From the NCBI GenBank assembly GCA_022496185.1, contig WTXG01000100.1, positions 62,001 to 126,000 of the forward strand: a stretch of DNA of 64,000 nt. The letters run 5' to 3'. Below are positions 37,097-61,274 of this stretch, in pieces (position 1 is the first letter of the stretch; the number at the start of each line of letters is the position of its first letter). The DNA is from Multifurca ochricompacta (Eukaryota > Basidiomycota > Agaricomycetes > Russulales > Russulaceae). The notes beneath the pieces were generated by a model, which did no database searches, had not been told where the DNA came from, and saw only the letters and a program-made list of their open reading frames with translations. The position numbers and the translations under genes are program-made.

Positions 37097-37846
37097 CTTC
37101 CCACTTAACATCATCTCAGGGAGCAGCCCCTCTGATGGTGACTCCTCACACTTAACTCCAAGAAGTCTTATTGGCTTCTTACCTGATACCATTGAACAAA
37201 CACTGTCACACAAGTTGTGTGGAACGTCCCACACCAGACATAATGTTACAACCTTTGCCGAGTAACCCCATTTTCTTTACCCTCCCTAATGACGACCCCT
37301 CTTTGCCACCCACTCTGCACTTCATGATTACGTCTCCATCCTGGGACCCATCACGTGCTCTACTCCCATCCCCATGACGCGCTTTGAACTTGTTTGCCTA
37401 TGTCTACCTTGCTATCTCCTTATCTTGTTATCTCTCTTTATCTTTACAACCGGACACTTACTTAATACCCTATCAGAAGCCAGGCTTTACGCCATCCGCT
37501 TTCGTATATTTGGGTCCACCTGACTCCAGTTTCTTATCTTATAGATGCCCATTTGATTACATATATAAGTCTGCTGTAGCTACACTGTAGACCCCAGACT
37601 CAACTTATTGAATACATCAGTGTTTGTCTTCCGGACATCCCCTTTGATCTCTGACTTGTTCATCTCAGTGCTTTGGGCACTTATCTGCTTAACATTGTCT
37701 TCGGGAGCAGCCCTGTTGACTTTGACTTCTCCCCTTTGACTCCAAGGAGCCTTATTGGTTTCTTATCCGATCCCAAACAGCACGCTGTCACACAAGTCAT
37801 GTGGAATGTCCTGCACTGGACATAACATCAAGTCAAGTCTCTCACA

Positions 37847-39279
37847 GTGGCTTCCAGCTGCAGTCAGACCCTCTTCTGTGAAGAACTCATTGAACGCAGA
37901 GATGAGAATAATCTTTCACAACAAGTACTTGGCTCTGCTGCCTGGAAAGATTTTGAGTCTGAGTTTGGATACTACGTCTATCATGACAGAAGATACCAAC
38001 CAGTAGAATATGACAATGAGAAAAGAGTTTGGTATTGCATCCGATACTTGGAAAGCCGACACTCTTGGGTCACTACAGGACCCACCCCACCCGAATTTGG
38101 ACTAGGCCCATGGAGAGAAAACCCTCCGGCCATTGTCACGGACTCCAAACCAGAGGAGTATGTAGAAGAACCTAGTGAAGAAGAAGCACCAGCATTAGCA
38201 GCGACTATGTTTCTGGTTGCACCTGAAGTTGTCACAATCAGAGCTCCTGCTTTGACAACTCCCCAGATATCGGTACAATCCACGAACACTATCACCCCAT
38301 TCCATCAGTCCATGTCTACCATTGCCGCCCAACTTCCAGACCCTGCCCCACCAGCCCCAGTGGTGGCACCACCAAACATCCCTCCCCTGTCCGGATGACT
38401 ATCAGGAGTGTTGCCCCAGACATTCACTGGGGACCACTCACAGAGTAAAAAGTTCATGTTGGAGTTTACGACCTTCAAAAACTTCAACCATGACATCCCA
38501 CAGATTGTCAACCCATTCCAATGTGCCAATCTGTTCCTTTCCCTAATTTGGGGGGATGCAGTTGATGACTGGACCATGGAGCAACTGGAGTGGCTCAATG
38601 AGCAGGTGAAAGCGGGTGTCGTACCACAAGTGAGGGTCTTTGGGAGACCATTGCCGAATGGTTCAAAGATGCCTTTATGGATGGGCAGGCCAAACAAAAG
38701 GCAGCCCGAGAATTAAAATCCCTTAGGATGGAGAAGGGAGAACTAGATGCATACGTTGCTAAATTCAGAAGCCTGGCAAATAGGGCTGGCTATGACACAG
38801 ATGAAGAGGCCACATTAGACCTCTTCTCACAAGGGTTGCCCAACCCGCTAGTCAAAAACATAATCCAGTTCCACCACCCCCATGACTGGGATAGCTGGGT
38901 TGATGCCACCTGATGACAACAGCAGGATTACCTCGACTTCCAAACACGCTTTGGAGTCGACACCAAAAGGGAAAAACCAGAGATCAATGGAAGGCCGCGT
39001 TTGGAGTAAAGCCTGCCCAGCATGCCCAGAGGGATCCAAACGCTATGGACACCTCTGCAGACTGAGCCCAGCCTGGCAATGCTCACAGAGGATGAGCGAC
39101 AGATGCTGATGAAGGAAGGACGATGTTTTCGCTGCAAAGCGCTCAGGCATATGTCCCAGGACTGTCCGAAGAAGGGGGGTGTGTCGCTGCTGCAACCACT
39201 GCGACCAAAGCCCCATTCAAATAACCCACCCACTGTGGACAAAAATCAAAAGAAGAGAAAGCTCAGGATATTGGGCTAA
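37847..39279 (+). pseudogene. Gyp-2 copy 1 gag
   Basis: Starts near MASSCSQTLFCEELIE (183 codons to a TGA at about 38396), continues in frame-shifted pieces: FTGDHSQSKKFMLEFTTFKN, WTMEQLEWLNEQVK, then KGELDAYVAKFRSLANRAGY and the zinc knuckle CFRCKALRHMSQDCP (about 39125). At least three breaks. The extended acidic N-terminal region before the gag core has no motif I recognise. Confidence 0.75.
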
Positions 39280-39469
39280 TATGATGAAAGAAAGTGAGGA
39301 AGTGCATGCCATCTTGGTGGAAAGGCGTTTGCGAAAAAGGATTTTTGTTAGGCTCAAACCCATTGGCCTGGGCACGAGCACTCCATGTCACCTCTGTGTA
39401 TGCTAGTCGATTCAAGTCATTGAAAATACCAGTACATTTTGAAACTACACAGAGGACGGCCGACCAGAT

Positions 39470-42400
39470 ATATTAGTGGACTCTGGAGCCACAGACAACT
39501 TCATTCACCCATGATTAATTAAAACATGGGTCTGGGAAGGCTGGCACTTCCCCAGGAAAAGAATATTTGGAACATTGACAGAACGGCCAATCGTGCTGGC
39601 AAGATCACCCACTATATGGACCTAAAAGTCCAGGTTGGGGAAATAACAAGGACCATTCGCTTCCTGATCACCGACCTAGGAGACGAAGACCTTATTTGGG
39701 TTACCCATGGCTTGCTGCCTTCGAACCAAAGATAAACTGGGCCGACGCAACAATGGATAAAGACTCATACCCAACTATTATTACGTTGTTGGGCTATGAT
39801 TATGCAATTCAGCATCTGGTAATGAGGGCCATGCGTACAGAGGAGGACCCCGGTTACTGCTATGCACCAAAGCATCAGAACTGGCCCAGAAGGCAGCACA
39901 AGGACAGAGTGAGAAGACCTACCACGACGTAGTACCAAGCGTTTATCAGCGGCACTGGAAGGTATTCTCCGAAGAAGAGTCACATCGTTTTCCTCCGGAG
40001 TGACCATGGGATCATGCCATTGACCTCTCCCAGACACACCAGCCGCAATAGATTGTAAAATCTATCTGCTGTCCCAGTCTGAACAGGTTGCACTCATGGA
40101 ATTCCTGGAAGAACATCTTGCCAAAGGGTACATTTGCCTGTCCAAATCACAGTATGCCTTGCCCTTCTTCTTCATCAAAAAGAAGGACGGCAAGCTGCGA
40201 CCTGTCCAGGACTACCGAAAGATCAATATGTACACCATAAAGAATGCCTACCCCCTACCACTGATTTCTGAACTCATTGACACCATGCGGGACAAGTCCC
40301 TCTTCTCAAAAATGGATGTATGCTGGGGCTACAACAATGTCAGGATCAAAGAGGGTGACCAATGTGAAGCAGCGTTTAAAACAAATCAAGGGTTGTTCGA
40401 ACCAAATGTCATGTTCTTTGGCCTTACAAACTCACCAGCAACATTTCAATCCATGATGAACCACATCTTCTGCGACCTCATTCTTACTGGAGAAGTTGTG
40501 GTCTACATGGATGACATCCTAGTAGCTACCCCAGATGACTTAAGCCATCACCGAGAGCGAGTGCACCAGGTGCTAGACATATTACACAAACATGATCTAT
40601 ACCTTAAACCAGCCAAGTGCTCCTTCGAACAACGGAGCATTGAATACCTGGGAGTCATCCTGGAAGGAGGACAAGTGCGCATGGATCCCATTAAAGTACA
40701 AGGGATCCGAGAGTGGCCAGTACCAACCTGTGTCAAAGACGTCTGATCATTCATTGGGTTCTGTAACTTTTACTGATGCTTTGTCAAGGGATTTTCAGGC
40801 ATTGCATGACTGCTGAATGATCTCTTAAAGAAGGATGTGCCATGGCATTGGGGAGCCACACAGCAGTGGGTGTTTGAACAGATCAGAGACATTGTCGGCT
40901 CAGAGCCAGTACTCATTCAACCCGACCTAAACCGCCCCTTCGAATTGGAAGTAGACACCTCCCACTTTGCAAATGGAGCGGTATTATACCAGAGAGATGC
41001 CGCACAAATACTTCACCCAGTGGCATATTATTCTGAAACCTTCTCGCCGGCAGAACGTATGATATCTGGGACAGAGAGCTCCTAGCCATCATCAAGGCAT
41101 TGCGACACTGGTGACCTTACCTGGCAGGAACTCCCCATAAAACCATCATCCACACTGACCATTCCAACCTGTTGTATTGGAAGGAACCCCATAAAATCAG
41201 CTGACATGTAGCACAAGAAGTTTTGGAACTAGAAGAGTATAATTTCACCCTGAAACACATTGCGGGAAGTCAAAATGCTAGAGCGGATGCATTATCATGA
41301 AGGCCAGACATGCATACTGGAGAAGATGACAATGACAACATCACTGTTCTCCCAGAGGAAGTATTTGCAATGACTGCCATAGTCAGCCTCCATGACATGG
41401 ACCTGTGGGCACAAGTTTCACAAAATATGAACCAGGAATTGTGCCACTCATGGGCTGAGGCGCATGATTTGAAAGAAATAGACGGCCTTTGGTGGAAAGA
41501 CGGAGATCGGCTTGTTGTCACTGGTGGCGACAACATTAAGAGGGGGGTGATCCATTTTCACCATGACCTCCCCTCTGCAGGACACCCCGGCATTGCTAAC
41601 ACTTACGCCCTTGCCAAGCGTGACTACTGGTGGCCTAACATGAAAAAGGACGTTGAAAACTATGTTCAAGGGTGTGCAGCATGCCAAGCAAACAAAGTGA
41701 ATACACACCTGAAAATCCCGCCGATACATCCCATTACCCCCATATCGTTGACTCCCTTCCAAACCATAGTGATGGACTTCATCATCAAATTACCTGAATC
41801 ACAGGGCTTTGATACCATCCTCATGATCACTGACCATGATTGTTCCAAGGCAGCCCTGTTCATACCTTGCAATGAGACGATCACGGCTGAAGGGGTAGCA
41901 AGACTATACCTGGATCATGTATACCGCCACTATGGTCTCCCCAAAAAGATCATATCCAACAGGGATACCCGGTTTACATCAGCATTTGCCAAAGCCCTGT
42001 GCAAGACATTGGACATTGCACAGAACATTTCCATGGCTTATCACCCACAAACAGATGGACAGTCTGAACGAACGAACCAATGGTTGGAGCAGTATCTTTG
42101 GTTCTGGTGTAACGAACGACAAAACGACTGGGCAGAATGGCTGTCGACTGCGGAGTTTGCACACAACTCATGGCCCAATGGGATGACAAAAGCTACCCCC
42201 TTCTCCCTTATCATGGGCTGGACCCCGCGCACCACGTGGACAGATAAGCCCACCAACGTCCCTTCAGTAACCCAATGGATACACCAATGGGAAGACTTAC
42301 AACAATCGGCCAATGAAAACCTGGCAAAGGCACAGCAAGCCCTAGCTGCGCAGCCAAGCACATTCACACCTTATCAGCCCAATGACTGGGTCTGGCTTGA

Positions 42401-42782
42401 AGGAAGGAATATTCACACGTCACACCCCTCAGCCAAGTTGGCACCCCGACACCATGGACCCTTCCAGATCAAAAGGAAGCTGTCAGATGTGTCATACGAA
42501 CTGCAATTACTGCCCAAATGGAAGATCCATCCTGTCTTCCATGCCAAACTTCTAACACCGTACAAGGAGACGTCTCTTCATGGGGAAAACTTCCCAAGAC
42601 CTCCACCTGACCTTATCAATGGAGAAGCAGAGTGGGAAGTGGAGCGCATTCTAGACTCAATGTGAAAAGGCCAAGGGCGCAAGATGTATTACCTAGTCAA
42701 GTGGAAGGGATTCCCAGACGCTGACAGTTCGTGGGAACCAGCTGGGAATATCTTTGCCCCAGTCCTTATCTCGGAGTTCCAT
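39470..42782 (+). pseudogene. Gyp-2 copy 1 pol
   Basis: Protease core VDSGATDNFIHP (near 39478). RT from [18 protein letters not shown] to [14 protein letters not shown] (40500 region). RNase H with FELEVDTSHFANGAVLY. Integrase with HHDLPSAGHPGIANTYALAK, CAACQANK, VMDFIIKLPES and HPQTDGQSERTNQWLEQYL (41310-42665, the longest open stretch). Chromodomain EWEVERILDSM(stop)KGQGRKMYYLVKWKGFPD. Stops at about 40003, 40744, 40774, 40807, 41113, 41203, 41299 and 42663. Several correspond to Arg in copy 2, consistent with CGA to TGA. Confidence 0.87.
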
Positions 42783-42851
42783 GACTGACACCCAGAAGCG
42801 CCCAAGGACAGTTAAAAGGAACAGCCTCCGACTCTATCGAACCCCCAGTAC

Positions 42852-44090
42852 ATGCTCCCCCAGCAACGTCCTAACACCATCGAATCAATTATGTCTTTCA
42901 TCGCTGCCAACGCTGCTGTCGACACCTTCACAGCCACCACCGTAGTTGTTGAGAACTTCCCCTCCGCTCATCCCTCTACACACCCCTCCTCACCCATTGA
43001 CTATGAAGCTGCTGAAGCTCGGGTCAAGAACCAGTCCCCGAACCTGAACGACGATTTTGAACACAGCGAAGAGCCACACCCAAACAACCTGCTAGGCATG
43101 GAGCTGGATGATGAGGTGCCAGAATTCCCATTCTTCACCAACAACCCCAATTCCTCGACCTACTTCCCCCTTGAAATCACCATGGCTGACGGAACCATCG
43201 CCATTGCCAAGTACATATTCTATACTAATGGAGGAATGGATGTTGCCGGATGCATGAAGAAGGACGGCCCTGTCTACAGGGCCCCAGTCTATTTAGAGGA
43301 AAGGTACACAGGACGCCTTCATCACACAATGACTGATGAGAAGCTCAGGCACCTGGCTGCTGAGGATTCTCGCACCTTTGCAATCGACGAGGTGCTGAAC
43401 AATATGCGCCTTCCGTGTCTCAAAGCAGAAGTGATGAGACTGCAGAAGACTCTGACACTGCGCACAACACTCAATAAGCAATACAAAGAACATGCGAAGA
43501 TGATGGCAAGACTGACGAATGGGATGTTCCAGGTGGAGCAGGAGTTGGTGGAAATCAGAAAGAGGCTGGAGATAGGGGATGTGTACCAGACCATCGCTGA
43601 ACAGTACGCTGATACATATGCACGACCCCTTCCCCCACAATCGCTGGGGGCCGCCCCAAGGCTAATACCAAACCGGTTCGAAATGCCACATATGCACGAG
43701 AACCCCCGCGGAGAGACATGTTGGCGATGCAACAGTAAGTACCACATTAGCTGGAACTGTCCCCTCAATCACAAGTGGTGCAGGCATTGTCGCAGCAACC
43801 TCCATTGGAGCCGGTTCTGCATTTTCCACCGTGTAGGGGTTACCCCAACCATTGTCAATCCATCAGGATGGTGCGGCAAGTGCCTCCACCACAACTCCGG
43901 GCACCGCGAACTGGACTGTCCGATCCATGACATGTGCCATCTATGTGGTCAGTGTGGCCCATATGGGTTTCTTTGTACCCACCAGTGTCCACAGGACTCG
44001 GACAAGGAGAATTACACATTGGATGATCATAATGTAGCCGATGATTATTTGGACTTGGTGCAGGATGATGATGGTACGAGTCATTTCTAG
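42852..44090 (+). CDS. Gyp-2 ORF3 (copy 1): zinc-knuckle protein downstream of pol
   Basis: Uninterrupted 412-codon ORF starting MLPQQRPNTIESIMSF, shortly after the end of the pol chromodomain and ending just before the polypurine tract. Order: Ser/Pro and acidic N-terminal part (about 1-100); a globular-looking segment (about 100-170, ITMADGTIAIAKYIFYTNGG); a long helical segment likely coiled coil (about 180-250, KAEVMRLQKTLTLRTTLNKQ); then Cys/His motifs. Two are canonical CX2CX4HX4C knuckles (CWRCNSKYHISWNC from residue 290, CRHCRSNLHWSRFC from 310), followed by CX2CX6HX4C (CGKCLHHNSGHRELDC) and a degenerate fourth; acidic tail. No signal peptide or membrane segment, so it is not an Env. 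Nucleic-acid binding is inferred. Same length in copy 2 (60036-61274), with just under 60 substitutions and no gaps by my count. Confidence 0.85.
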   Translation: MLPQQRPNTIESIMSFIAANAAVDTFTATTVVVENFPSAHPSTHPSSPIDYEAAEARVKNQSPNLNDDFEHSEEPHPNNLLGMELDDEVPEFPFFTNNPNSSTYFPLEITMADGTIAIAKYIFYTNGGMDVAGCMKKDGPVYRAPVYLEERYTGRLHHTMTDEKLRHLAAEDSRTFAIDEVLNNMRLPCLKAEVMRLQKTLTLRTTLNKQYKEHAKMMARLTNGMFQVEQELVEIRKRLEIGDVYQTIAEQYADTYARPLPPQSLGAAPRLIPNRFEMPHMHENPRGETCWRCNSKYHISWNCPLNHKWCRHCRSNLHWSRFCIFHRVGVTPTIVNPSGWCGKCLHHNSGHRELDCPIHDMCHLCGQCGPYGFLCTHQCPQDSDKENYTLDDHNVADDYLDLVQDDDGTSHF

Positions 44091-44705
44091 CCAGGTCTGC
44101 TAGAACCAGAAGAGGGGGTGATGTTACAACCTTTGCCAAGTAACCCCATTTTCTTTACCCTCCCTAACAACGACCCCTCTTTGCCACCCACTCTGCACTT
44201 CATGATTACATCTCCATCCTGGGACCCATCATGTGCTCTACTCCCATCCCCGTGACGCGCTTTGAACTTGTTTGCCTATGTCTACCTTGCTATCTCCTTA
44301 TCTTGTTATCTCTCTTTATCTTTACAACCGGACACTTACTTAATACCCTATCAGAAGCCAGGCTTTACGCCATCCGCTTTCGTATATTTGGGTCCACCTG
44401 ACTCCAGTTTCTTATCTTATAGATGCCCATTCGATTACATATATAAGTCCGCTGTAGCTACACTGTAGACCCCAGACTCGACTTATTGAATACATTGGTG
44501 TTTGTCTTCCGGACATCCCCTTTGATCTCTGACTCGTTCATCTCAGTGCTTTGGGCACTTATCTGCTTAACATTGTCTTCGGGAGCAGCCCCATTGACTT
44601 TGACTTCTCCCCTTTGACTCCAAGGAGCCTTATTGGTTTCTTATCCGATCCCAAACAGCATGCTGTCACACAAGTCGTGTGGAACATCCTGCACCAGACA
44701 TAACA

Positions 44706-44927
44706 CAGGGGTTATGCCCTGAACTGAGATAGAACAAAAGTGAGAGGGGTTGCACCCACTGCAGAGAAACCATATGGTGCAATCAAGGGATCAGATCATA
44801 AGTGTTACCAATGGAAATTTGTCACAAACACGTCACAGACCGTCACATCCAAACCGTCACAGCTCTTGTCACAAGACTTGAAGGCAGAGATTGGAACAGG
44901 TATCAAATGCGAATCAGAATTGTCACA
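44706..44927 (-). mobile_element. Gyp-3 3' LTR, truncated
   Basis: In minus-strand sense it begins TGTGACAATTCTGATTCGC right after the purine-rich tract ...acagagggagtgg, and matches the first 222 bp of the Gyp-3 LTR at 55999-56219. It is cut by the end of the Gyp-2 element. The remaining part may be 24971-25155. Confidence 0.8.
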
Positions 44928-44949
44928 CCACTCCCTCTGTATGGTCTAG

Positions 44950-45360
44950 CTTGGCCCCAAGCTTAGTCATCCGGTAAGGCCATAAATGCAAGGGAGGAAT
45001 CTGGAGGTCGCAGTGGCAACGCGGCATTGTGGACTGTCAACCCTCTTCCACCTGGAGGACTGCCCTTAATTCTGAACAAGGGGCATAGTGGATTGTCGGT
45101 TCTGGGTGCATGGGTGGTCTCAGGAATAGGTGTATGGTAAGTAGGAGAAAGGATTGTAGGGTGGTATACATCACGTCTAGATGATGTGCAGATTGCGTAA
45201 GTGCGAATATCGCAGGTAGTTCGGTCCACCTGCTGTTGCAAGGCATTAGTCTGGTAGCACAGTGTTGACCTCTGTCTGGGTTGTAGGATCGCAAAGATCG
45301 TCTAGGGCTGAGCTTATTAGGGATATGGATTTTGATCTGCATCAAAGAAGCTTTTTGTTC
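44950..45360 (-). pseudogene. Gyp-3 copy 1 third ORF, degraded C-terminal part
   Basis: Two overlapping minus frames (45241-44963 and 45345-45037) share between them the C-terminal sequence of the better-preserved ORF at 56354-57481: QQVDRTTCDIRTYAICTSSR then RDVYHPTILSPTY in one frame (against HQADCATQDIRFAIHALSRG and GDVYHRIFPFLTY), and LFLRPPMHPEPTIHYAPCSE in the other (against RRMRPEEATLYAPHPELRAI). A frameshift therefore lies between them. It lies between the chromodomain and the LTR. Confidence 0.6.
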
Positions 45361-45530
45361 TGGAAGCAGAAGTGGTTAAGGATTGGGTTTGCACCACGCG
45401 TATGCTTAGGGCGGGGGATCAGCGAGAAATAGACATTGGATCAGGGTGATTGATGTGAATGAAAGTAAGGAAAATTGGGTCGTTAATCGTCAAATTTGTC
45501 TGAATTATCAGAAATACCCCCCTCTTAGGA

Positions 45531-48500
45531 CTAGCACCGACCCTGGCACTGGGATAGTGAACTGAGATAAGATTCAATTAAGTCCGGTGCATGACAATCC
45601 TCTTCGTCAACCCAAGAGTTATCACTGGCTGGATAACCTTTCCAGCTAACCAGGTATTGAAGCTTCTGTGCACATCCATAAGTGTGATGATTTAAGATCG
45701 TGTCTATCTCATATTCTTCTTCTTGATTGATAAGATTGGGGGGCAGTTGCATGTAATTTGGGCTGTGAGCATCTGTCTCTTGATAAGGCGATAAGAGATT
45801 GATATGGAACACGTTATGGATTTTCATATGGTGTGGCAAGGCTAAGCGATAGGCAACAGGGGAGATACAAGCCAGGATAGTAAAAGGGCCATATTGTCGA
45901 GGGGCCAATTTTGAGGAGGGGAAATGCGTCTTGAGATTCTTCCCTTCAAGCCAGACCTGGGAACCAATCTCAAGATGTGGCTGGTCTGATTGATCTGTGG
46001 TCTTTCTAAACGTGTCCTCCGCTCGAGATCACGCGTCGCTTAGATCGCATAGGCACTCATTGACCTGTGGAACGTCAGTTTCCACAGCCTTGGCCTTCCA
46101 GTCAAACTGTATACCATGAATTAGTGTGTGTGGGGAGAGCTTCATTTTATCATGTGGCCAGGAATTGTGAACATATTCAGCTAGCGGTAAGTATTTGGGC
46201 CAACGATACTGATCATTGCTTATCCAGAGTCGCAAGTACTGTTCAAGCCAGAGGTTCATATGTTCACTCGAGCCATCTGTCTGGGGGTGGAATGCAGTCG
46301 ACAAGTTTTGTTGGATCTGAAGAACTCTTGCTAATGCATGCGAGAAATGAGATGTGAACTGTGGATCTCGATCGGAGATGATGCATTGTGGGATTCCAAA
46401 GAATGGAAAAAGGTGATGATAATAAAGGGTCACAACTCCCTCGCCTGTGATATCTTTGGAGCAGGGTATAAATTTGGCAGCTTTAGAACATCCTTGATCT
46501 ACGATTGTGAGTACTGCATCATATTTCCCAGCCAACGGGAGATCCGTGATCAGATCCATAGCAATATATTGGAACAGACCAGCGGTAGCCGGTACATCTA
46601 AGGGAAAGGTCGGTGCTTTCCTGGTGAGCTTGGGTTTATTCTCTTGACACTTTGCGCACCCCCGGACGTATTCTCATACAAATTCTTTTAAACCTTCACC
46701 TTCATATTCATATTGTACTCCTTGTATGGTTTTATCTATACCTGGGTGTCCCACCAGAATATGATCATGATATCGCTGAAGGACTTTGTGCCGCTCCAGG
46801 AGAGAGCTTGGGAAGGGAAGTTTCACAGGCTTAGATGTCTTAAGGAATAGCTCGGCAGGGAGGACGGTGATTTCATCATTATCTCCTAGTCCGTGATTGG
46901 CGTCTGGTTGGTGTGAAAGCATATCTGCAACTGTATGAAGCTTTCCTGGGACATGCTCCAATGTGAAGTCGAAATCAGCAAGCTCTTGCAGCCATCTAGC
47001 TTGCTGGCGATTGAGTTTTTGGGGCTCCTTGAAGTACTGAAGATTATTGTGATCAGTGCGGACTTGGACCTTATTCTTGGCGCCGAGAAGGTATTGACAC
47101 CACAATCTAAATGTGATGATGATAGTGAATAGTTTGCGATCGTAAATGTCCCAGTTACGCTGTGTAGCATCTAGCATCTTCGACAGGTAGGCAATGGGGT
47201 GTAGTCGTCCTTCAGGATCCTTTTGACTCAGGGTTGCCCCAAGGGCATAGCCTGAGGCATCAGCATCCACAATGAAAGGTTCTTCAAAATCTGGTTGTAT
47301 TAGTACTGGTTGTGAGGTCACTCATCGCTTAAGAGTGTCGAATGCCTCCTGTTCCGTATTGGTCCATTTCCAAGGGTTCTTGGCACTTGTGAGCGCATTT
47401 AGTGGGGCCGCAATCTTGCTAAATCCCTGGATAAACCATCGATAGAATTGGCAGAACCCTAGGAATGAGCGGATCTCTTTCACAGTCGTAGGTGTTTTCC
47501 AAGTGGCAACGCCTTCTACTTTGACCAGATCCATGTGCACCTGATTCGCCTCGAGGATAAGACCAAGGTATTCTATACGTGTTTGTTCAAAAGCACATTT
47601 TTCCGGTTTGAGGTAGAGATCCAATTTATCGAGTTTATCTAAGACACGATGTACTTTGGATTGATGATTGTGGAGATCATGATCAGTATGAATTAAGATG
47701 TTGTCCATATACACAGTAAACCAAGCATTCCCAGTTTCATCGCATTCATTAAGTTCTTCTCTAAATTCCGCATTCATCATGGTCTGGAATGTTGCTGGAG
47801 AATTTGTGAGACCAAAGAACATCACATTGGGTTCATATAGTCCGTGATTTGTCTTGAAGGCTGCCTTCCATTGGTCCTCTGGGACTATACGGATATTGTT
47901 ATATCCCCAGCGAACATCCATCTTCATGAACAGAGTGCTGCCGCGGACGCGATCTATGAGTTCCAGAATTAGTGGTAAGGGGTATGTATTTGGATCGTCC
48001 ATTCATTAAGTTTGCGATAATCTTGGACTGGCCTAAGTTTTCCATCCTTCTTTTTGATGAAGAAGAAGGGCGATGCATATGGCGATTTTGACTCTTTAAT
48101 GTACCCCTTCTGTAGGTGCTCCTCCAAGAATTTATTCAATGCGTCCTGTTCTCCCGGTCCTAACGGATAGATCCTACAATCTAGTGATGAAGGTGCATCT
48201 GGTTTTAGCTCGATTCGATGATCCCAAGGTCGGGCCTCAGGAAAGCGCTGTGCTTCCTGGTCACTGAACACCTTCTGATGTCGATGATACTCTTTTGGCA
48301 CGATCTGATCCCAAGAGTGCTCAATATTATCTTTCGCTTTGATTGCTAGTTCCTGAGCAATATTCAATTTTCTAATAAGTGCTTCTGGTACGTTGAGTTG
48401 AATTGATTGCATAAGACGTCCTTGACTCCAGTCTATAATCGGGTTACTAGCAGCAAACCAGGGATAGCCTAAGATCATTTGGTCCATCCCGATCGACGCA

Positions 48501-49147
48501 ATGTAGAATCGATGTCGTTGAGATTTGTTGTCTGTAGTTATATCGAGATCCACATATTTATCAATGTTCCGGGTGGCATTAGGGGTTCCATCAGTGTTTT
48601 GTAATTTCCTTGGGATCGCGAGTTGTTTGGTCAGGAGTCGGTATTTGATAACTGTTCTGTAACTGATGAAATTTTCTGTTGCACCACTGTCAACAAGTGC
48701 TTCTATGTCGGCCATTTCTTTCACACCATGGAGGGGAACAATTATTTTCATTGCTTGAATTGGTGAAATGTATACATGATGTGAAACTATCGCTCGAATG
48801 AACACTGCGCCATTCAAGCGATATAAAAAGTCCTCATCGTCTTTGAACTGCTTCTGTAACTCCAAGCGTTGGTTGTTGGTCATCGATTTCAGGGATGCTG
48901 CAAGTGCCACATGTCCATGGGTGGCTTTGAACATTTGATCCAGTGGGTACCATTGCAGTCGTCGGAGCAATTTCTGTGATGGCAGCAGTCCAGGCTGGGG
49001 CGCTTGTGCTGGGTCAAGGCTTCTTGGTTGGGCAATCACGAATGAGATGACCTCGTTGGCCGCACTCAAAACAGCGGCCCTCCCTTCTATATTGTTCTTT
49101 GTCTTTGGTAGTGACTGCCTTTTTAATTGCGTTGACGTCCATGGCAT
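45531..49147 (-). pseudogene. Gyp-3 copy 1 pol
   Basis: Protease core EALVDSGATENFIS; RT from [20 protein letters not shown]; active site reads VYMDNILIHTD, the second catalytic Asp being Asn (GAC to AAC, near 47700), which should abolish RT. RNase H with FIVDADASGYALGATLSQK. Integrase with VGHPGIDK and the core VDQGCSKAAKFIPC, ISDRDPQFTSHFS and HPQTDGSSEHMNLWLEQYL. Chromodomain YEIDTILNHHTYGCAQKLQY then LVSWKGYPASDNSW. Frame changes near 47980 and between 46674 and 46559. Confidence 0.88.
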
Positions 49148-50364
49148 TCAGATTGCGTCGTTGAGGGAGCATGGACTGTATTCCTTGACTAGTGCTTCGG
49201 TTAATGATTGGTGTTTTGTTTGCGAAGAGGCTCTGTATGTAGATCCAGTTTGCATGGTATTGTCGAGCTGAGTCTGCTGTTTCATCGAACGTCTGGGGAC
49301 TATCCTGAGTGATCATAGTCTGCACTAGTTTCTGAGGTAACCCCTTTTGAAAATTCTGTCGAGTTGCTGGATCATCTAGGTACAGCCTGGCCCGAATTGC
49401 GAGATCTCGGAATTCGGTGATGTAATTGTCGATATTTCCATTTGTCATCTGGAGTTTCTCTAGCCCCTGGAGTGCCTTTTGTCCTGCGGCTATATTGGCG
49501 AATGCCACCTGAAATGTTTGGTGGAATTTCTCCCACGGGTGCGGCTCTTGAATTCTGGCATGGGTGATGTTGGCTAGCCACCTTGTCTGTTCTGTCACCC
49601 ATCGGCTAACTTTTGTCCTCTCACTAGGGCCAACACATAGGAAACTCTGGATATCTTGTTTTTATAACTGTCACTTGGTTGTTCAGAAATGTGGAGCTCT
49701 ACTTGAGTCCACCAGTGCTCTGCCTCAGCTCAGTTTCCGTCGAAGAATGAGGGTGGTACCCTTCAATCCGTCCTCTGGTCGCACCATCCTTGGGTGCTGT
49801 GGTTGCAAGTAAGTCAGTGGGTCCTCCTTCAGGGTCTTCTGGGTCAGCTGATTGCTGTTGTTGTCTAGGTTGGGGTTCAGGAAGTGTGGTCGACATCGGT
49901 TCAGGTTTGCTCCTGCTGGTAGCGCTTCGATAACGGTTGGAGGATATTTCTGTTAGTGGGGTTCTGGAGGTATCAGGTACATTCAGTCCAGTTTCGTTAG
50001 GGGCTATCCTAATAGCTTCAATTTGTCCTAGGTTATTGGGATGGACTTGGTACCAAGTCCCTTGGTAAAGGTTGACCACGAGCTGTGTATGTCGGTAGGG
50101 AATCCAATATCCCCTAAAAGGTATGTGTTCCTCTTGTAACTCTAACCAGCATGCATTTCGCTTTAGCTCTGGGTCAATGTTGTCAGTCAATCGGATGGGG
50201 AGGATGAATGGGAAGGAGGTCGCCACAGTCGCAAGGGTTGTTTTGATGGACATCAATGAAGACACCTGGAGCAGTCCTGCTCCCAGTTGAGGTTCAAGTA
50301 AGAAGTCAGGGTTCTGTGTTGTGTGGGACGCTCTTAGTTGAGGAGTCGTTTGCGAGAAGTGCAA
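49014..50364 (-). pseudogene. Gyp-3 copy 1 gag
   Basis: N-terminal frame 50364-49699 (Gln/Pro-rich end) stops at a TAG; the second frame 49598-49014 contains the gag core (EKFHQTFQVAFANIAAGQKA, NIDNYITEFRDLAIRARLYL) and zinc knuckle CFECGQRGHLIRDCP, then overlaps pol in another frame. Matches the normal gag/pol arrangement with at least one break. Confidence 0.8.
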
Positions 50365-50810
50365 GGCGGTTTCGGTTTACAGGTAAGATTCTTTCAAGGC
50401 TCTGGGTTACTGATCGGTCTTCTAGGTTTCGGGTTGGCGACTGATACTCGAGGGACACGTTGTCCATCGAAGGCATCTGTGTAGCGAGCTATGAAAGTGT
50501 AGCTCAGTCTTTGGGATAGAAAGACTATATAATTTGATAATACCTATGAAAGCATAGCTACACAAATGAATCAGTAAAGGAAAGATGCAGCTACAACACA
50601 AGGAGTACTGACCTCAGTCTTTGGGATAGAAAGACTGAGGTTCCTAACTACGCTACTAAGTTCTTTTGTAAGAGCGAAGTATAACAAATAGACATGAAAA
50701 TTTGCATGACCCACGTGCTCTGAATATTGCATTGATGCAGTGATGATCAGATCTGGGCTGCCATCTCCGGTATCAATTGGCTGCATGCTATGGCTGCACT
50801 TCCAACACGC

Positions 50811-53492
50811 CCCCTCAGCCTGCACGCTGGACTCCCATCGCGTCTGCGAACTTCTCATGTTTCTTGCGGACGAGGCCTTTTGTCAACACATCAGCAAGCT
50901 GTTCTTCCGTTGGCACATATGTCAGTTCGATAACTTGGCTTTTGCACATGTGCCTCAAGAAGTGATGCCTTATCTTGATGTGTTTAGTGTGATCATGGAA
51001 CTTGGGGTTTCAGGCAACAGATATTGCAGATTGATTGTCCATGCAGAGGGTTGTCAGTGAGTCACTCTTCTGGTGGATGTCAGCTAGTAATCGATGCAAC
51101 CAGACAGCTTCTTTTGCAGCATGTGCTCCAGCAATATACTCAGCCTCAGTACTCGATAGTGCGATGGATGGTTGCTTCTTGGAGCTCCAGCTAATTGCGC
51201 CTCCAGCAAGTAGGAAAACAAAACCCGATGTGGACTTCTGATCGTTCACATCACTGGCCCAATCAGCGTCAACATAGCCGTACAGCTCAGTTCCCTTAGG
51301 TGCATTGTGTTTGAAGACAAGTTTTGCACTGCTCGTGGCTCTGAGGTAACGGAAAGCGCGGTTCAGAGCTTGCTGATGCTCCTCCCCAGGGTTCGCAGCA
51401 TGCCTCCCAAGCACTGCAACAGTGTATGCTAGGTCAGGACGGGTGCCGAGCATAGGGTACATCAATGCGCCGATCGCTTGCTGGTACCTTTTGACGTCAA
51501 CTGTAGGTGACTCGAGCTTCTTTAGGTGCTCGTTTGCGAGGGTGGGTGTGCTAATGGGTCACACGTCAGATTTTCCAAAACGCTTCAAGATTTCTTCAAT
51601 GTATTTTTCTTGGGAGAGCGCCATCCATCTGGCCTTGCGGTCGCGCGTGATGTGCATCCCAAGAATCCAGGTGATTTCGCCCAGGTCAGTCATCTCATAG
51701 GCATTTCTGAGTGCCTCTTTGTCTTCATTGATCTCCTTTAGGTCCTTTGACACCATGGTGATGTCATCAACGTAGAGAGCAATAATAGAGGACTTTGCAT
51801 TTCTGTGGTGGACGAAAACTGTGTGGTCAGCTTCAGTGCGTTGGTATCCTATGTTTTCAAGCTTAGCTCTGATGTCTTGATACCAGACGCGGCTGCCTTG
51901 CTTCGTTCCGTAGACTGCCTTGATAAGTCGGAGTACCATCCCCTCGGGAACTTCAAAACTGGGAGGTGGCTCCATGTAAATCTCTTCTTTTAGTTCGTCA
52001 TTTAGGTATGCTGACTTCACATCCATTTGGTGAACTTCCAGGTTGTATTCAGTTGCTAGTGCGAGGATTGCGCAAAGCGATGCAAACTTTGCCACTGGGG
52101 CGAATGTCTCATCATAGTCAACTCCTTCAACTTGAGTGAAACCCTGTGCGATGATGCAAGCCTTGTGCCTCAAGACCTCTCCAGTTGGCCTGCGCTTCGT
52201 GCGGAACACCCACTTGCTGCCAACCACCTTGTGCCCCTTTGGGTGTTCGACAACTTCATACACTCCATGGACTCGAATGATCTCATCTCCTCCTGGCAAG
52301 CAACTTCCCATTCGCCAGCATTGAGTCATGCCATAGCTTCTTTGAAGGTGCGTGGGTCACTTTCCAACTCAAGCTGTGCGATGTTGGCTTGCTCTGTAAG
52401 GTTCCCTTTTGTCTTGTAGGAGCTAATGGAGTAGTGAGGGTCATTGTCGCGGATAGGAGGGCAAGCGGTTCGCTTTGGTCGGGTGGTGATAGGCATTGGT
52501 GTTGGTGTCAGTGCTGGTGCTGGAGTCTCAGTGAGTACATTTTCAACTTTGCTGTCGCTACTTTGCTGAATTTGGCTAGGGTTTTGCACTGGTGTATTAG
52601 GCCGCAGCTCAATAATGTTGTCGTTTTCACCGCTAGTTTCTGCATCGTCGAATTCAATAATGACTCTTTCACTGTGTGGCCCCCCTTCATTGAATACAAC
52701 GTCGCGCGATTTGTAGAAACATCCCGTTGGGTGGTGCACTAGACGGTAAGCTTTGTGACTACGAGCATACCCCAAGAATGTGCACAATAGGGACTTTGCA
52801 CCAAGCTTGGTGCGATATTTTGCTGGGATATGCACAAACACTTGGCAGCCGAAAACACGCAAGCAAGAAACGTCAGGTTTATTTCCGCTCCAAGCTTCAT
52901 CAGGCGTGGAGTCTGCCAGTGCACGGGTGGGTGTGACATTGTGCAGATAAGCTGCGTACTCTAACGCATTGTACCAGTAGGTCTCAGGCAAGTCAGCATC
53001 AATTAGCATCATCTGGACTTTATCAAGAAGTGTCCAGTTCATGCGCTCCGCAATGCTGTTATGCTGAGGTGTGTCTGCCATTGTCATTTCGTGTTTGATG
53101 CCTTTGTCTTGCAGGAACCTCTGGGCGGCAGCGGTGATATATTCGCCCCCTCCATCTGTATGCAACACCCTGACTCGCTGACCTGTTTTGACTTCTGTGC
53201 ATGCAATGAAGCTTTTGAGATGGTGAGTGACTTCAGATTTGTCTCGCAGGCCGGCAACAAAGACTCTTCGGGACTTATCGTCCACCCAGGTTACAAAATA
53301 TTTGAATCCTTGGTGGGATTGTTGTGGCAACTTTCCACATACATCTGAGAAGATTCGCCCTAGGACTTGGGTAGCTCTGGTCCCAGTTTCCTTCTGGATT
53401 TCAGCGTGGGTCTGCTTCCCTTTGAGGCACGTCTTGCAGAGGTCAGGGGGGCTTGTCTGTGAGGTAATGTCCATCCCCTTAACCATCCCCTT
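50811..53492 (-). pseudogene. Cop-2 integrase, RT, RNase H
   Basis: Integrase continues DLCKTCLKGKQTHAEIQKET, GRIFSDVCGKLPQ, LHTDGGGEYITAA, HNSIAERMNWTLLDKVQMML. TGA at 52326, then a one-base frameshift near 52270 (SM-GVYEVVEHPKGHKVVGSK). RT with MDVKSAYLNDELKEEIYME and LYVDDITMVSKD. TGA near 51559. RNase H from SALMYPMLGTRPDLAYTV-type sequence to LSSTEAEYIAGAHAAKEAVW, then a TAG-like break at 51010 before the end HIKIRHHFLRH...ADVLTKGL. Four or so lesions in all, so a fairly young but dead copy. Confidence 0.85.
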
Positions 53493-55004
53493 TCACATCA
53501 TTTGGAGAACAGCATTGACATGTAGATGACCAAGGTGGCGGTGCCAGGTGTGTAAGTCAGTTTTCGCCACTGAGTTTCGTGCAACTAAAGCAACTTCATC
53601 ATCGGGGTTAGCCTTGTCCCCTTCACCCAGGAAAATATCGACTTGAGCGATCTGGACTCTCTCCGGGACTACAGTGTGGGCGTCCATCATGTAGAGGTTG
53701 CCTTCAAGGCATCCCTCACAGGTAAGCACTCCAGTCTGACTGTAGATCTGGCAGGAATTCTTGGCAAAATGCACATTGGCTCTGCGACTGGCGAGTTGAG
53801 CAACAGATAAAAGATTTCCATGTAGTTTGGGGACATGTAGGACGTCTTGGAGAATGGCATCACTCCACTTCCCATTTGCTGTCATTTGGACATGGATGCA
53901 ACCGATGCCGGTGCTGAGGATGCTGCTGTTGTCGCCTAAGACAATTTTTACTGGGTTGGTGAGTGTTTTGAAATTGAAAAACCAGTTCCGATGGGAGCAC
54001 ATGGTACGTGAAGCTCCAGAATCGATAATCCATCGCTGATTTAGATTGATGCGTGATGATAGGGCTTGTAGCACTTTGAACAGGAGTACAGGGCTGTCCC
54101 CTTGCGGTGCACTGTCACTGGCAGGTGCCTGGTCTCCAGTTACTGTGACTTTGGCTGTAGTGTTGGGAGATTTCTGCATATCATCTCCAGTGCCACTTGC
54201 TTTGGCCTCATTTTCCTTTTCCAGCTTCCAGCACTCTTCCACCACATGGCCACACTTCTTACAGTGAGTGCAGCGTTTCTTTGTCTTCTCCTCCTCTGAC
54301 TTTCCCTTTTTAGCTGTATTTGCTGAGCGCGCGAAGTAAGCGGTCACTCCAAGGCCTGATTCTTGGACGCAACATTGTTCATCAAGAATTATTTGTGACT
54401 TGACATGCTCAACGGTAAGGGAAGATGGATTGGACATAGAAAGGATGGTTTTTAGGGTGGATAGGGAGGTAGGGAGTGAGGAGATGATTGCAAAAGCAAC
54501 GAGCTTGTCATCCAATGGCAAACCGATGTTGGATATGGTATGGGCAGCCCTGACTATGGTGTTTATCTGGGGCTCGAGTGATTCTGTGTCCAAGAGGGTG
54601 GAGCGGAAGACGTCATTGATAAGGTAAACAGTCTTCTGCTCTCCTTTGCCTTCATAGTGGACTAATAGCTTCTCCCAGCATTCCTTGGCTGTCTTCGCAT
54701 ACAGGACTGTACTCAGGGGTTCGTCCTTGAGCGTCAATGATATTTGCGCTTGTGCTTCGCTATCTTTGGATGCCCATTCCTCCTGTATTTCAGGAGGTGC
54801 TGTGGCATCTGGCTGAGGCTCTGATCCATCAACCACAGACCACAATCTCCGCAGTTTCAGGACCATCTGAACTCTGTACTTCCAGAATGTGAAGTTTCCA
54901 CCATCATCTTCCAAGGAGGGTATGTCATATTGATGTGCTCCTTTTGAGTTTGCCGCAGGTGATGCTGCTGCCACTTTGGGTGCCGCTGTGCTGGGGGAAC
55001 TCAT
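53493..55004 (-). pseudogene. Cop-2 gag-protease-integrase start
   Basis: Open for 503 codons from MSSPSTAAPKVAAASPAANS. Copia gag domain (LKDEPLSTVLYAKTAKECWE, then KLLVHYEGKGE), zinc knuckle CTHCKKCGHVVEECW, protease RWIIDSGASRTMCSH, and the integrase zinc region beginning TWHRHLGHLHVNAVLQMM, where a single TGA (53493-53495) separates it from the rest of pol in the same frame. Confidence 0.87.
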
Positions 55005-55530
55005 TGCTTATAGTGTGTGGTGGTTTTCTGTCTGGTGTGTATTCTGGTTGGATTTAGAGCAACTCAGGTCTCATAATCTGTAGCAAGCTATGAAAGCGTA
55101 GCTCAGTCTTTGGGATAGAAAGACTATATAATTTGATAATACCTATGAAAGCGTAGCTACACAAATGAATCAGTAAAGGAAAGATGCAGCTACAACACAA
55201 GGAGTACTGACCTCAGTCTTTGGGATAGAAAGACTGAGGTTCCTAACTACGCTACTAAGTTCTTTTGTAAGAGCGAAGTATAACAAATAGACATGAAAAT
55301 TTGCATGACCCACATGCTCTGAATATTGCATTGATGCGGTGATGATCGGATCTGGGCTGCCATCTCTGGTATCAATTGGCTGCGTGCTATGGCTGCACTT
55401 CCAACAGTCTGTAGCTCTCACGCAGAATAAGATGTCGTTGGTCAGGAATTTGGGCAATGGGACGCATCGTCGTCGCCTTGCGGGTTCGGGTGAGTTCTTT
55501 TGTTTCTAAGTTCTGATAAGTCTGTTCTAA

Positions 55531-56219
55531 TGTCACAGCCAGGTCTCTGCTGTGTCAAGGTCATTCAAGTCACTGCTCCTCAAGATATAGAGCACATGCA
55601 AAGTCAAGGTCAAGACTGTCAAGGGCAAGTTGATTCAAGGGTGTCAAGGCAAACTACAAAGAGCTGCGGTCAAGGGCAAGTCAATTCAGATGTCAAAGTG
55701 AGCTACAAAGAGCTGCGGTCAAGGTTCAAGGCCCACAAGATCCAAGAGGGGCATGTGTGCAAGCAGGGAGTTGAAGCAGTGGCAATAGGCCCTGCTGGAA
55801 GTCTGGGGAGAGGGCTTCCTAAGTCGCAGCTTAGGAAGTTCAAGAGGATTTCTGGTGAAGAATAGTAGACCTGTATTGAATACAAGAGAACAGACTTAAG
55901 GTCTGTCTCTGTAATGTAGCAGTTTAAATACATCTTGAGATAGGCACATCAGTAAATGTAAGTTAATCAGAATGTTCCAGTAAGTGTCCACATGTGCCAG
56001 GGGTTATGCCCTGAACTGAGATAGAACAAAAGTGAGAGGGGTTGCACCCACTGCAGAGAAACCATATGGTGCAATCAAGGGATCAGATCATAAGTGTTAC
56101 CAATGGAAATTTGTCACAAACACGTCACAGACCGTCACATCCAAACCGTCACAGCTCTTGTCACAAGACTTGAAGGCAGAGATTGGAACAGGTATCAAAC
56201 ACGAATCAGAATCATCACA
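55531..56219 (-). repeat. Gyp-3 5' LTR (copy 1)
   Basis: 689 bp; minus-strand sense TGTGATGATTCTG...CCTGGCTGTGACA. Shares its start with 44706-44927 and its end with the LTR at 57520-58095. Near its 3' end (plus 55655-55730) the motif acaaagagctgcggtcaagg occurs twice about 50 bp apart. Confidence 0.85.
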
Positions 56220-56353
56220 CCAGTCCCTTCCCCAGCGTCAGAGCCGACGCCGCCCTTAAGAGAGAGGTGATTTTCCAATCTTTCTTTCCTCATCCCAATT
56301 CAAGATAACAAATTCTGGCCTGCAATAAACACACCATCCACTGCAACGCATCA

Positions 56354-59414: not shown

Positions 59415-60004
59415 TGTTACGTCTGGTGCGGGACGTTCCACACGACTTGTGTGACAGCGTTCGTTCGTGTATCAGGTAAGAGACCAATGGGGTCCCTTGG
59501 AAGTATGCGGGAAGAGTCAAAGTCAAAGAGGCTGTACTCTAAGACAATGTTGAGCGGAAAGTACCAGAAGTACTTGAGATGGTCGAGTCAGAGCGTTCAA
59601 AGGGAAGTCCAGAAGACAAGCACCAATGTATTCAATAAGTCGAGTCTGAGGTCTACAAGGTAGCTACAGTGGACTTATATACGTAATTGGGTGAGCGTCT
59701 AAAGATAAGATAAGACAAAGTCATATGGGCCCGAATATACGAAAGCGGAGGGCGTAAAGCCTGGCTTCTGATAGGGAATTAAGTAAGTGTCCGGTCATAG
59801 AGATAAGGATAGAAGATAAGAGATAAGAGGGCAAACGTAAGTATAGTAATGCAAACAAAGACAAAGGCAGTCACGGGGAAGGGAGCAGGGCACGTGATGG
59901 GTCCCAGGAAGGGGACGTAATCAAGAAGTGGAGAGTTGGTGGAAGAGAAGGGTCGTCATTGGGGAGAGTGAAGAAAATCGGGTTGCTAGGCAGGGGTCGT
60001 AACA
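59415..60004 (-). repeat. Gyp-2 LTR (copy 2, 3')
   Basis: 590 bp, LTR sense TGTTACGACCCCTGCC...GACGTAACA. Best-preserved LTR of the family in this window and the reference for the solo copies at 5150, 7847, 23726 and 25156. Confidence 0.92.
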
Positions 60005-60035: not shown

Positions 60036-61274
60036 CTAGAAATGACTTGTACCGTCATCATCCTGCACCAGGTCGAGATAGTCGTCGGCTACATTACGAT
60101 CATCCAGGGAGTAGTTTTCTTTGTCGGAATCCTGGGGACATTGATGAGTGCGAAGGAACCCGTAAGGGCTGCGCTGCCCACACGAGTAGCAGAGGTCGTG
60201 GACAGGGCAGTCCAGCTCGCGATGCCCCGCGTTGTGGCGAAGACACTTGCCACACCATCCGGAAGGGTTGATGATGGTTGGGGCGACGCCAATGCGACGG
60301 AAGATACAGAACCTACTCCAATGCATATTGCTACGGCAGTGACGGCACCACTTGCGGTTGAGGGGACAATTCCAACTGATGTGATACTTGCTGTCGCACC
60401 ACCAACATGTCTCTCCTCGGGGGTTCTCGTGCATCCGCGGCATCTCGAACCGGTTCGGCAGCAACGTGGGCGCGGCCCCCAAAGATCGTGGGGGGAGGGG
60501 TCGTGCATACGTGTCAGCGTACCTCTCGGCGATGGTTTGATACGCATCTCCCTTTTCCAACCTCTTCCTGATCTCCACCAATTCCTGTTCCACCTGGAAC
60601 ATCCCACTCGTCAGTCGTGTCATCATCTTTGCATGTTCTTTATACTGCCTGTTGAGCGTCGTGCGCAATGTCAGGTTCTTCCGCAGTCTCATTACTTCGG
60701 CTTTGAGACGCGGAAGGCGCATGTCATTCAGGACTTCATCGATGGCGAAGGCTCGGGAGTCTTCGGCAGCTAGGTGTCCGAGCTGCTCGTCGCTCATTGT
60801 GTGGTGGAGACGCCCTGTGTACCTTTCTTCCAAGTAGACCGGGGCCCCATAGACTGGACCGTTCTTCTTCATGCATCCTGCTACGTCCATCCCTCCATTG
60901 GTATAGAAGATGTACTTAGCTATGGCGATCTCTCCCTCGGCCATGGTGATCTCGAGAGGGTAATACATGGATGAGTTTGGGTTATTGGCGAAAAACAGAA
61001 ACTCCGGGACTTCGTCGTCCATCTCCATCCCCAAGAGGTCATTTGGGTGGGGTTCCTCACAGTGGTTGAAGTCGTCATTGGGGTTGGGAGATTGATTCTT
61101 GACTCGGGCCTCGGCGGCCTCGTAATCGATAGGAGAGGAAGGGCGTGTGGAAGGATGAGCGGATGGGAAGTTCTCGACAACTACGGTGGTGGCCGTGAAG
61201 GCGTCGATGGCAGCGTTGGCAGCGACAAAAGACATGATAGATTGGATGGTGTTAGAACGTTGCTGGGAGAGCAT
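60036..61274 (-). CDS. Gyp-2 ORF3 (copy 2): zinc-knuckle protein downstream of pol
   Basis: Intact 412-codon ORF, start MLSQQRSNTIQSIMSFVAAN; the frame is open further upstream but this ATG matches copy 1. Pol ends with a TAA after the chromodomain sequence SEFHARHPEAPKNS about 70 bases earlier, in another frame. Cys/His motifs: CWWCDSKYHISWNC, CRHCRSNMHWSRFC, CGKCLRHNAGHRELDC and CYSCGQRSPYGF(L)RTHQC. A helical segment LKAEVMRLRKNLTLRTTLNR precedes them, and an acidic tail (DDYLDLVQDDDG) follows. Both copies keep the frame while pol does not. Likely nucleic-acid-binding; role in the element unknown. No membrane segment. Confidence 0.87.
   Translation of the reverse strand: MLSQQRSNTIQSIMSFVAANAAIDAFTATTVVVENFPSAHPSTRPSSPIDYEAAEARVKNQSPNPNDDFNHCEEPHPNDLLGMEMDDEVPEFLFFANNPNSSMYYPLEITMAEGEIAIAKYIFYTNGGMDVAGCMKKNGPVYGAPVYLEERYTGRLHHTMSDEQLGHLAAEDSRAFAIDEVLNDMRLPRLKAEVMRLRKNLTLRTTLNRQYKEHAKMMTRLTSGMFQVEQELVEIRKRLEKGDAYQTIAERYADTYARPLPPRSLGAAPTLLPNRFEMPRMHENPRGETCWWCDSKYHISWNCPLNRKWCRHCRSNMHWSRFCIFRRIGVAPTIINPSGWCGKCLRHNAGHRELDCPVHDLCYSCGQRSPYGFLRTHQCPQDSDKENYSLDDRNVADDYLDLVQDDDGTSHF

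What the first reader, a model, noticed from the sequence alone, without database searches (positions are those of the whole stretch)
42852..44090. Third ORF after the chromodomain of a Ty3/Gypsy element, intact while gag-pol is ruined
Seen: 412 codons with no stop directly before the polypurine tract, whereas gag-pol of the same copy has more than ten lesions. It has at least three Cys/His knuckles, a probable coiled coil and acidic ends, and no signal peptide or membrane span. Known: Ty3/Gypsy elements normally end at integrase/chromodomain, and when a third ORF exists it is usually env-like. Inference: an element-encoded nucleic-acid-binding accessory protein, perhaps a second nucleocapsid or a regulator. 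I do not know of a description of this protein.
Basis: partly seen in the sequence, partly recalled or inferred. Interest (0 to 1): 0.86.

Follow-up and report, generated by a model that had tools for sequence, protein, structure and literature searches.

The report
Extra zinc-knuckle gene in fungal retrotransposon
A large family of virus-like jumping genes in a fungal genome carries, after its usual enzymes, an extra conserved protein with four probable zinc-binding knuckles that may grip RNA or DNA, and in a sister family the same protein is joined to the end of the enzyme chain.

Summary
ORF3 is real: 412 codons at 42852-44090, between chromodomain and polypurine tract. At least 101 copies score in the window's own genome; 45 of 45 family-A loci tested have the PPT/LTR behind it. 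The contrast "intact ORF3, ruined gag-pol" is not general: copies chosen by ORF3 have fewer lesions in ORF3 than in integrase, copies chosen by RT the reverse. This ORF3 also carries 21 unusual residues.

It is nevertheless a conserved element protein. Median dN/dS is 0.043 (integrase 0.048) in 8 copies; 16 zinc-ligand positions are invariant in 46 copies. Relatives: a Multifurca protein, 69% identical over 169 residues, and a metagenome protein, 34% identical, with all four knuckles.

New here: in a second family (B) of the same genome the domain follows the chromodomain in one frame with Pol. In the window's family (A) a TAA separates them, with ORF3 in frame 0, 1 or 2 in 19, 13 and 16 of 48 junctions, which argues against readthrough as the general route. 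Best reading: a nucleic-acid-binding Pol cofactor, separate in A. Function untested.

The parts
37244..37827 (+). 5' LTR of copy 1
   Evidence: 585-nt self-match with 20 mismatches to the 3' LTR; flanks CATAA and CAGGG, no target-site duplication seen
37826..39348 (+). gag of copy 1, broken (6 stops, 1 frame change); own CCHC knuckle at 39124-39168
39321..42815 (+). pol of copy 1, broken (11 stops, 6 frame changes); RT 40024-40743, integrase 41301-42662, chromodomain about 42669-42785, conserved pol TAA at 42813-42815
42852..44090 (+). ORF3 of copy 1, 412 codons and TAG; second in-frame ATG at 42891 (residue 14) is the first ATG in subfamily A2
43131..43301 (+). conserved N-terminal domain, residues 94-150, no known family
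43413..43616 (+). probable coiled coil, residues 188-255
   Evidence: low confidence
43719..43988 (+). four zinc knuckles, residues 290-379; 16 ligand positions invariant in 46 copies
44102..44121 (+). polypurine tract
   Evidence: sequence
44122..44705 (+). 3' LTR of copy 1
60036..61274 (-). ORF3 of copy 2, 86% identical, frame open; its 3' LTR is about 59415-60004 and its pol runs off the window end

Best explanation
ORF3 is a conserved accessory protein of a Ty3/Gypsy chromovirus lineage in a fungus, probably an agaricomycete. It has an N-terminal domain of no known family, a probable coiled coil, four zinc knuckles and an acidic tail. It most likely oligomerises through the coil and binds element RNA or cDNA through the knuckles, as a cofactor of Pol (reverse transcription, the integration complex or its targeting). 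In family B it is the C-terminal domain of Pol. In the window's family A a stop codon separates the two and the protein starts from its own ATG, by termination-reinitiation or from its own, perhaps spliced, mRNA. Shown: conservation, selection, knuckle ligands, one frame with Pol in B, separation without a fixed frame in A. Inferred: nucleic-acid binding, partnership with Pol, mode of translation. Not settled: whether A is a fission or B a fusion.
For: At least 101 copies scored; PPT/LTR behind ORF3 in 45 of 45 family-A loci tested. Median JC dN/dS 0.043 against 0.048 (integrase) and 0.023 (RT) in 8 RT-selected copies with single-frame ORF3; 0.053 in all 16 usable RT-selected copies. In 28 ORF3-selected copies, changes shared by three or more copies are 218 synonymous to 54 replacement, private ones 36 to 87. 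16 ligand positions invariant in 46 copies, nine other Cys/His positions of the stretch average 0.85. All four knuckles in the 34% identical P0003 and in the fused P0004. Weak profile matches of the first two knuckles to LIN28 and Gag nucleocapsid, E 0.0011 and 0.0012. Chromodomain to ORF3 domain without a stop in L036, L051 and L052; 28 of 150 B matches but 1 of 101 A matches lie in open frames of 500 or more codons (my count from the tables). Purifying selection in B: pN/pS 0.128 for the ORF3 domain, 0.101 for integrase-chromodomain, one pair (L051, L052).
Against: No expression, binding or interaction data. Pfam has no match for ORF3, not even a CCHC knuckle. Both structure models are unusable (mean pLDDT 34 and 39). 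The only two sampled copies free of lesions in the RT, integrase and ORF3 pieces (L045, L049) both have ORF3 in frame 0, so readthrough is not excluded for them; some frame differences may be post-insertion indels, though the 40-nt and 38-nt spacers recur in 12 and 9 copies. ORF3 was broken in more RT-selected copies than integrase (6 intact of 18 against 8 of 20). Of the three B loci, L036 has a stop inside the chromodomain and is cut off by other sequence, and L052 has a stop inside the knuckle region. Only two homologues were found outside this genome.
Confidence: 0.6

Rival explanations
1. A second nucleocapsid: ORF3 coats or packages genomic RNA in the particle, perhaps having arisen from the gag knuckle.
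For: Tandem CCHC knuckles; profile matches to nucleocapsid proteins; first ORF3 knuckle aligns with the gag knuckle, hhalign probability 54%, 22 columns.
Against: Gag keeps its own knuckle. Joined to Pol in family B, it would be made at Pol level, low for a coat (inference). The gag match is short.
Confidence: 0.2
2. A regulator acting outside the particle, for example on host silencing, splicing or translation of element RNA.
For: Knuckles, coil and acidic tails also occur in regulatory RNA-binding proteins such as LIN28.
Against: One frame with Pol in family B and the position next to the chromodomain fit a Pol-bound role better.
Confidence: 0.14
3. An env-like protein.
For: Position behind pol; a coiled coil.
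Against: No membrane-type stretch, conserved zinc knuckles.
Confidence: 0.01
4. A captured or chance frame without function, open in this copy by luck.
For: Broken in many copies; no Pfam family.
Against: dN/dS far below 1, invariant ligands, homologue at 34% identity with the same architecture.
Confidence: 0.02

Closest known systems
[quoted passage not shown] section 5 and search passages read, figure and supplements not seen)
   Same: Fungal chromodomain elements in which some carry an extra ORF, by the legend of Figure 3.
   Different: Where that ORF lies and what it encodes could not be seen, so identity with this protein is untested.
Bdelloid rotifer LTR elements with non-env ORF3 (PMC5408684; abstract and search passages read)
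   Same: A third ORF after pol that is not env, shared across families.
   Different: Those encode GDSL esterase or DEDDy exonuclease; this one has zinc knuckles.
Retroviral nucleocapsid and LIN28 CCHC knuckles (PDB profile match)
   Same: CX2CX4HX4C knuckles in tandem.
   Different: Here four knuckles, the last two of other spacing, outside Gag, beside or fused to Pol.
Stop-restart cistrons of fungal viruses (victoriviruses; search listing PMC6631646 only, the rest recalled)
   Same: A downstream ORF close behind the stop of a long ORF.
   Different: Here stop and start are 36-43 nt apart in 40 A1 copies; the mode is not shown.

Membership tests
Ty3/Gypsy chromovirus | LTRs and PPT | tested here: met
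Ty3/Gypsy chromovirus | RT before integrase | tested here: met
   RVT_1 and integrase domains, in that order
Ty3/Gypsy chromovirus | Chromodomain behind integrase | tested here: met
   Pfam Chromo in the family-B relative; homologous stretch in the window and other A copies
Ty3/Gypsy chromovirus | Target-site duplication | tested here: not met
   CATAA and CAGGG flank copy 1; the 5' LTR abuts another LTR end; other copies not examined
Retroviral env | Membrane span | tested here: not met
CCHC zinc-knuckle protein | Conserved CX2CX4HX4C ligands | tested here: met
   Pfam gives no match
CCHC zinc-knuckle protein | Zinc and nucleic-acid binding | not testable with these tools
   needs bench work
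Gag nucleocapsid | Encoded in gag | tested here: not met
   behind pol; gag has its own knuckle
Readthrough or frameshift extension of Pol (family A) | Fixed reading frame relative to pol | tested here: not met
   Frames 0/1/2 in 19/13/16 of 48 A junctions; the two lesion-free copies are frame 0

The most novel reading that the evidence does not exclude
An undescribed class of retroelement accessory protein: a four-knuckle nucleic-acid-binding partner of the integrase-chromodomain that exists in one genome both as the C-terminal domain of Pol and as an independent cistron behind a stop codon, with translation begun without regard to frame. It would be a natural experiment on how Ty3 elements dose a Pol cofactor.
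Probability: 0.4. Interest if true: 0.75.

Novelty: new variant of a known kind. Interest (0 to 1): 0.6.

Why it matters
Extra ORFs behind pol are often guessed to be env (PMC5408684 says so, passages read). Here is a conserved non-env protein under selection about as strong as integrase, in an abundant element family, with a Pol-joined sister form in the same genome. That pairs a protein question (what four knuckles do beside integrase) with a translation question (how a third cistron is expressed whatever its frame), both testable in one fungus.

Tried and rejected
Idea that ORF3 is better preserved than pol: rejected, it depends on how copies are chosen. Readthrough as the general route: rejected by the mixed frames, with the reservation that the two copies free of lesions in the sampled pieces are frame 0. 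Spliced leader: GT[AG]NGT is not shared by position before gag in 19 gag starts (3 singletons; two of the 19 have less than 700 nt upstream); 14 of 19 share one at +332 inside gag, which lies in coding sequence and out of phase with ORF3 (phase worked out by hand). Other donor types were not tested. ATG avoidance in the A1 spacer: none, 7 of 40 with an ATG, 6.4 expected. Structure: both predictions too poor to search with, so no fold search was run. Viral contigs: no relatives. Single-sequence protein search: nothing. Out-of-frame alignment ends inflate the lesion count and the private changes of ORF3 in the RT-selected set (18 synonymous to 167 replacement private, 158 to 42 shared). Papers: ten searches listed no paper whose title or abstract describes this protein; passages of PMC2864245, PMC3411680, PMC5408684, PMC3248453 and PMC6338049 were read. 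The library lacks most subscription journals, and Repbase and GyDB were not searchable.

Full report
What was checked. The frame 42852-44090 translates to 412 residues without a stop. A second copy on the minus strand, 60039-61274, is 86% identical. Copy 1 lies between LTRs 37244-37827 and 44122-44705, with the PPT directly after ORF3. Copy 1 gag-pol has 17 in-frame stops and 7 frame changes against open frames of other copies.

Is the contrast meaningful? The window's own genome is held (54 Mb, 605 contigs). Two samples were used: 29 ORF3-selected loci besides the window copy, of which one is the same copy as an RT-selected one and was dropped (28 left), out of 101 scored; and 20 RT-selected elements out of 150 scored. 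Lesions per kb: ORF3-selected, integrase 0.87 and ORF3 0.29; RT-selected, RT 0.49, integrase 0.58 and ORF3 1.38. So each region looks best where it was the bait, and ORF3 is not spared in general. Decay is mainly CpG deamination: LTR pairs were found in 11 of the 20 RT-selected loci. In nine of them plus window copy 1, 91 of 91 differences are transitions, 73 at CpG and 18 in CA contexts that come in equal numbers on both strands, as expected where one CpG decayed differently in the two LTRs. I left out L046 (pair 20% diverged, doubtful) and L047 (25 differences, 21 transitions), so the rule is not absolute. Of 61 stops in the sampled pieces 57 are TGA. ORF3 has CGA codons about as often as gag and pol (1.94, 1.96 and 2.38 per 100 codons in three open frames), so the lack of a stop in copy 1 ORF3 is modest luck. 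The same ORF3 has 21 residues unlike at least 80% of the other copies, 9 of them lost arginines.

Is the protein real? Yes. The sample unbiased for ORF3 is the RT-selected one. In 8 of its copies with a single-frame ORF3, median JC dN/dS is 0.043, with integrase 0.048 and RT 0.023; in all 16 usable copies it is 0.053 (pairs saturated at synonymous sites drop out). In the ORF3-selected sample, changes shared by three or more copies are 218 synonymous to 54 replacement and private ones 36 to 87, as expected if selection acts while elements replicate and stops after insertion. All parts are constrained (pN/pS 0.09-0.12), the acidic tail least (0.17). The 16 ligand positions are invariant in 46 copies; nine other Cys/His positions average 0.85.

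Homologues. The single-sequence search found none. The profile of 16 copies found a 209-residue protein of Multifurca ochricompacta (Russulaceae), 69% identical over 169 residues, without the knuckle region. A search with the Pol-joined relative found a 444-residue metagenome protein, P0003, 34% identical to this ORF3 in the alignment, beginning with its own Met as predicted by its source, with the N-terminal domain and all four knuckles. Pfam has no match for ORF3 or P0003.

Two arrangements. In family A pol ends in TAA followed by an A-G run, and ORF3 follows. 48 distinct A junctions were read: 40 (A1) have the first ATG 36-43 nt from the start of the conserved TAA; 8 (A2) lack that ATG, and in 7 of the 8 the first ATG of ORF3 is the one at residue 14, 65-69 nt behind TTAAAAG (L048 has an earlier ATG, and one of the seven, L033, has an ATG before it in another place). 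The frame relative to pol is 0, 1 and 2 in 19, 13 and 16. A pyrimidine-rich CAG precedes in 47 of 48; class A1 was defined by CAGTACATG, so this is partly by construction. In family B (53% identity in ORF3; 75% in the integrase-chromodomain stretch) the chromodomain runs into the ORF3 domain without that stop in L036, L051 and L052; L051 is open throughout, L036 has a stop inside the chromodomain and L052 one inside the knuckles. 28 of 150 B matches but 1 of 101 A matches lie in open frames of at least 500 codons (my count). Residues after the A stop in frame 0 (KEQP in the window) resemble the B linker (KEQP in L036), which suggests homology across the stop; whether A is a fission or B a fusion is not settled.

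How it most likely works. Inference: the coil oligomerises, the knuckles bind element RNA or cDNA, and the place next to integrase-chromodomain in B makes a Pol cofactor the simplest role. In A the mixed frames call for an independent start. Reinitiation and a separate or spliced mRNA are both open: the CAG and the lack of ATG avoidance (7 of 40 spacers with an ATG, 6.4 expected) lean to the second; the lack of a shared GT[AG]NGT before gag leans against the simplest spliced leader. Against a frame-free start: the two copies free of lesions in all three sampled pieces, L045 and L049, are both frame 0.

Novelty. Additional ORFs of unknown function in fungal chromoviruses are named in a figure legend of PMC2864245 (section 5 read; figure not seen), and non-env ORF3s are known in rotifers (PMC5408684, passages). 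Ten paper searches listed no description of a four-knuckle protein behind, or joined to, the chromodomain; this is limited by the library. I file it as a new variant of a known kind.

Noticed in passing
37244-37827 against 44122-44705, and nine loci of L031-L050: LTR-LTR differences in ten elements are 91 of 91 transitions explained by CpG decay, a RIP-like or methylation-driven signature; L047 (21 of 25 transitions) and the doubtful L046 were left out.
   Followed up: partly
37826-38310 and homologous stretches: The open gag frame has no ATG in its first 160 codons. GTG stands at codon 8 in 18 of 18 family copies, with ACA before it in 16, and a relative (L029) has ATG there: gag may start at GUG, though neighbouring codons are just as invariant.
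   Followed up: partly
L002-L050 integrase and ORF3: Integrase and ORF3 trees conflict (AU test rejects each other's tree, with a too-few-replicates warning); L039 and L048 group with L043 and L007 in integrase but not in ORF3, as if recombination had swapped ORF3. Distances agree in 20 ORF3-selected copies (0.71-0.83) but not in 16 RT-selected ones (0.06-0.27), where broken frames spoil the alignment.
   Followed up: partly
37230-37250: The 5' LTR of copy 1 abuts the end of another LTR and has no target-site duplication, which suggests nested insertion or recombination.
   Followed up: no
44706-56228 (-): Another Gypsy element (repeats 44706-44936 and 55998-56228) with a chromodomain but no ORF3 match, itself carrying a copia-like element at 50480-55378.
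   Followed up: no
18861-21834 (-): Frames resembling a NACHT-ankyrin gene beside a stretch of VDDRVQGV-type heptad repeats; recognised by eye only.
   Followed up: no
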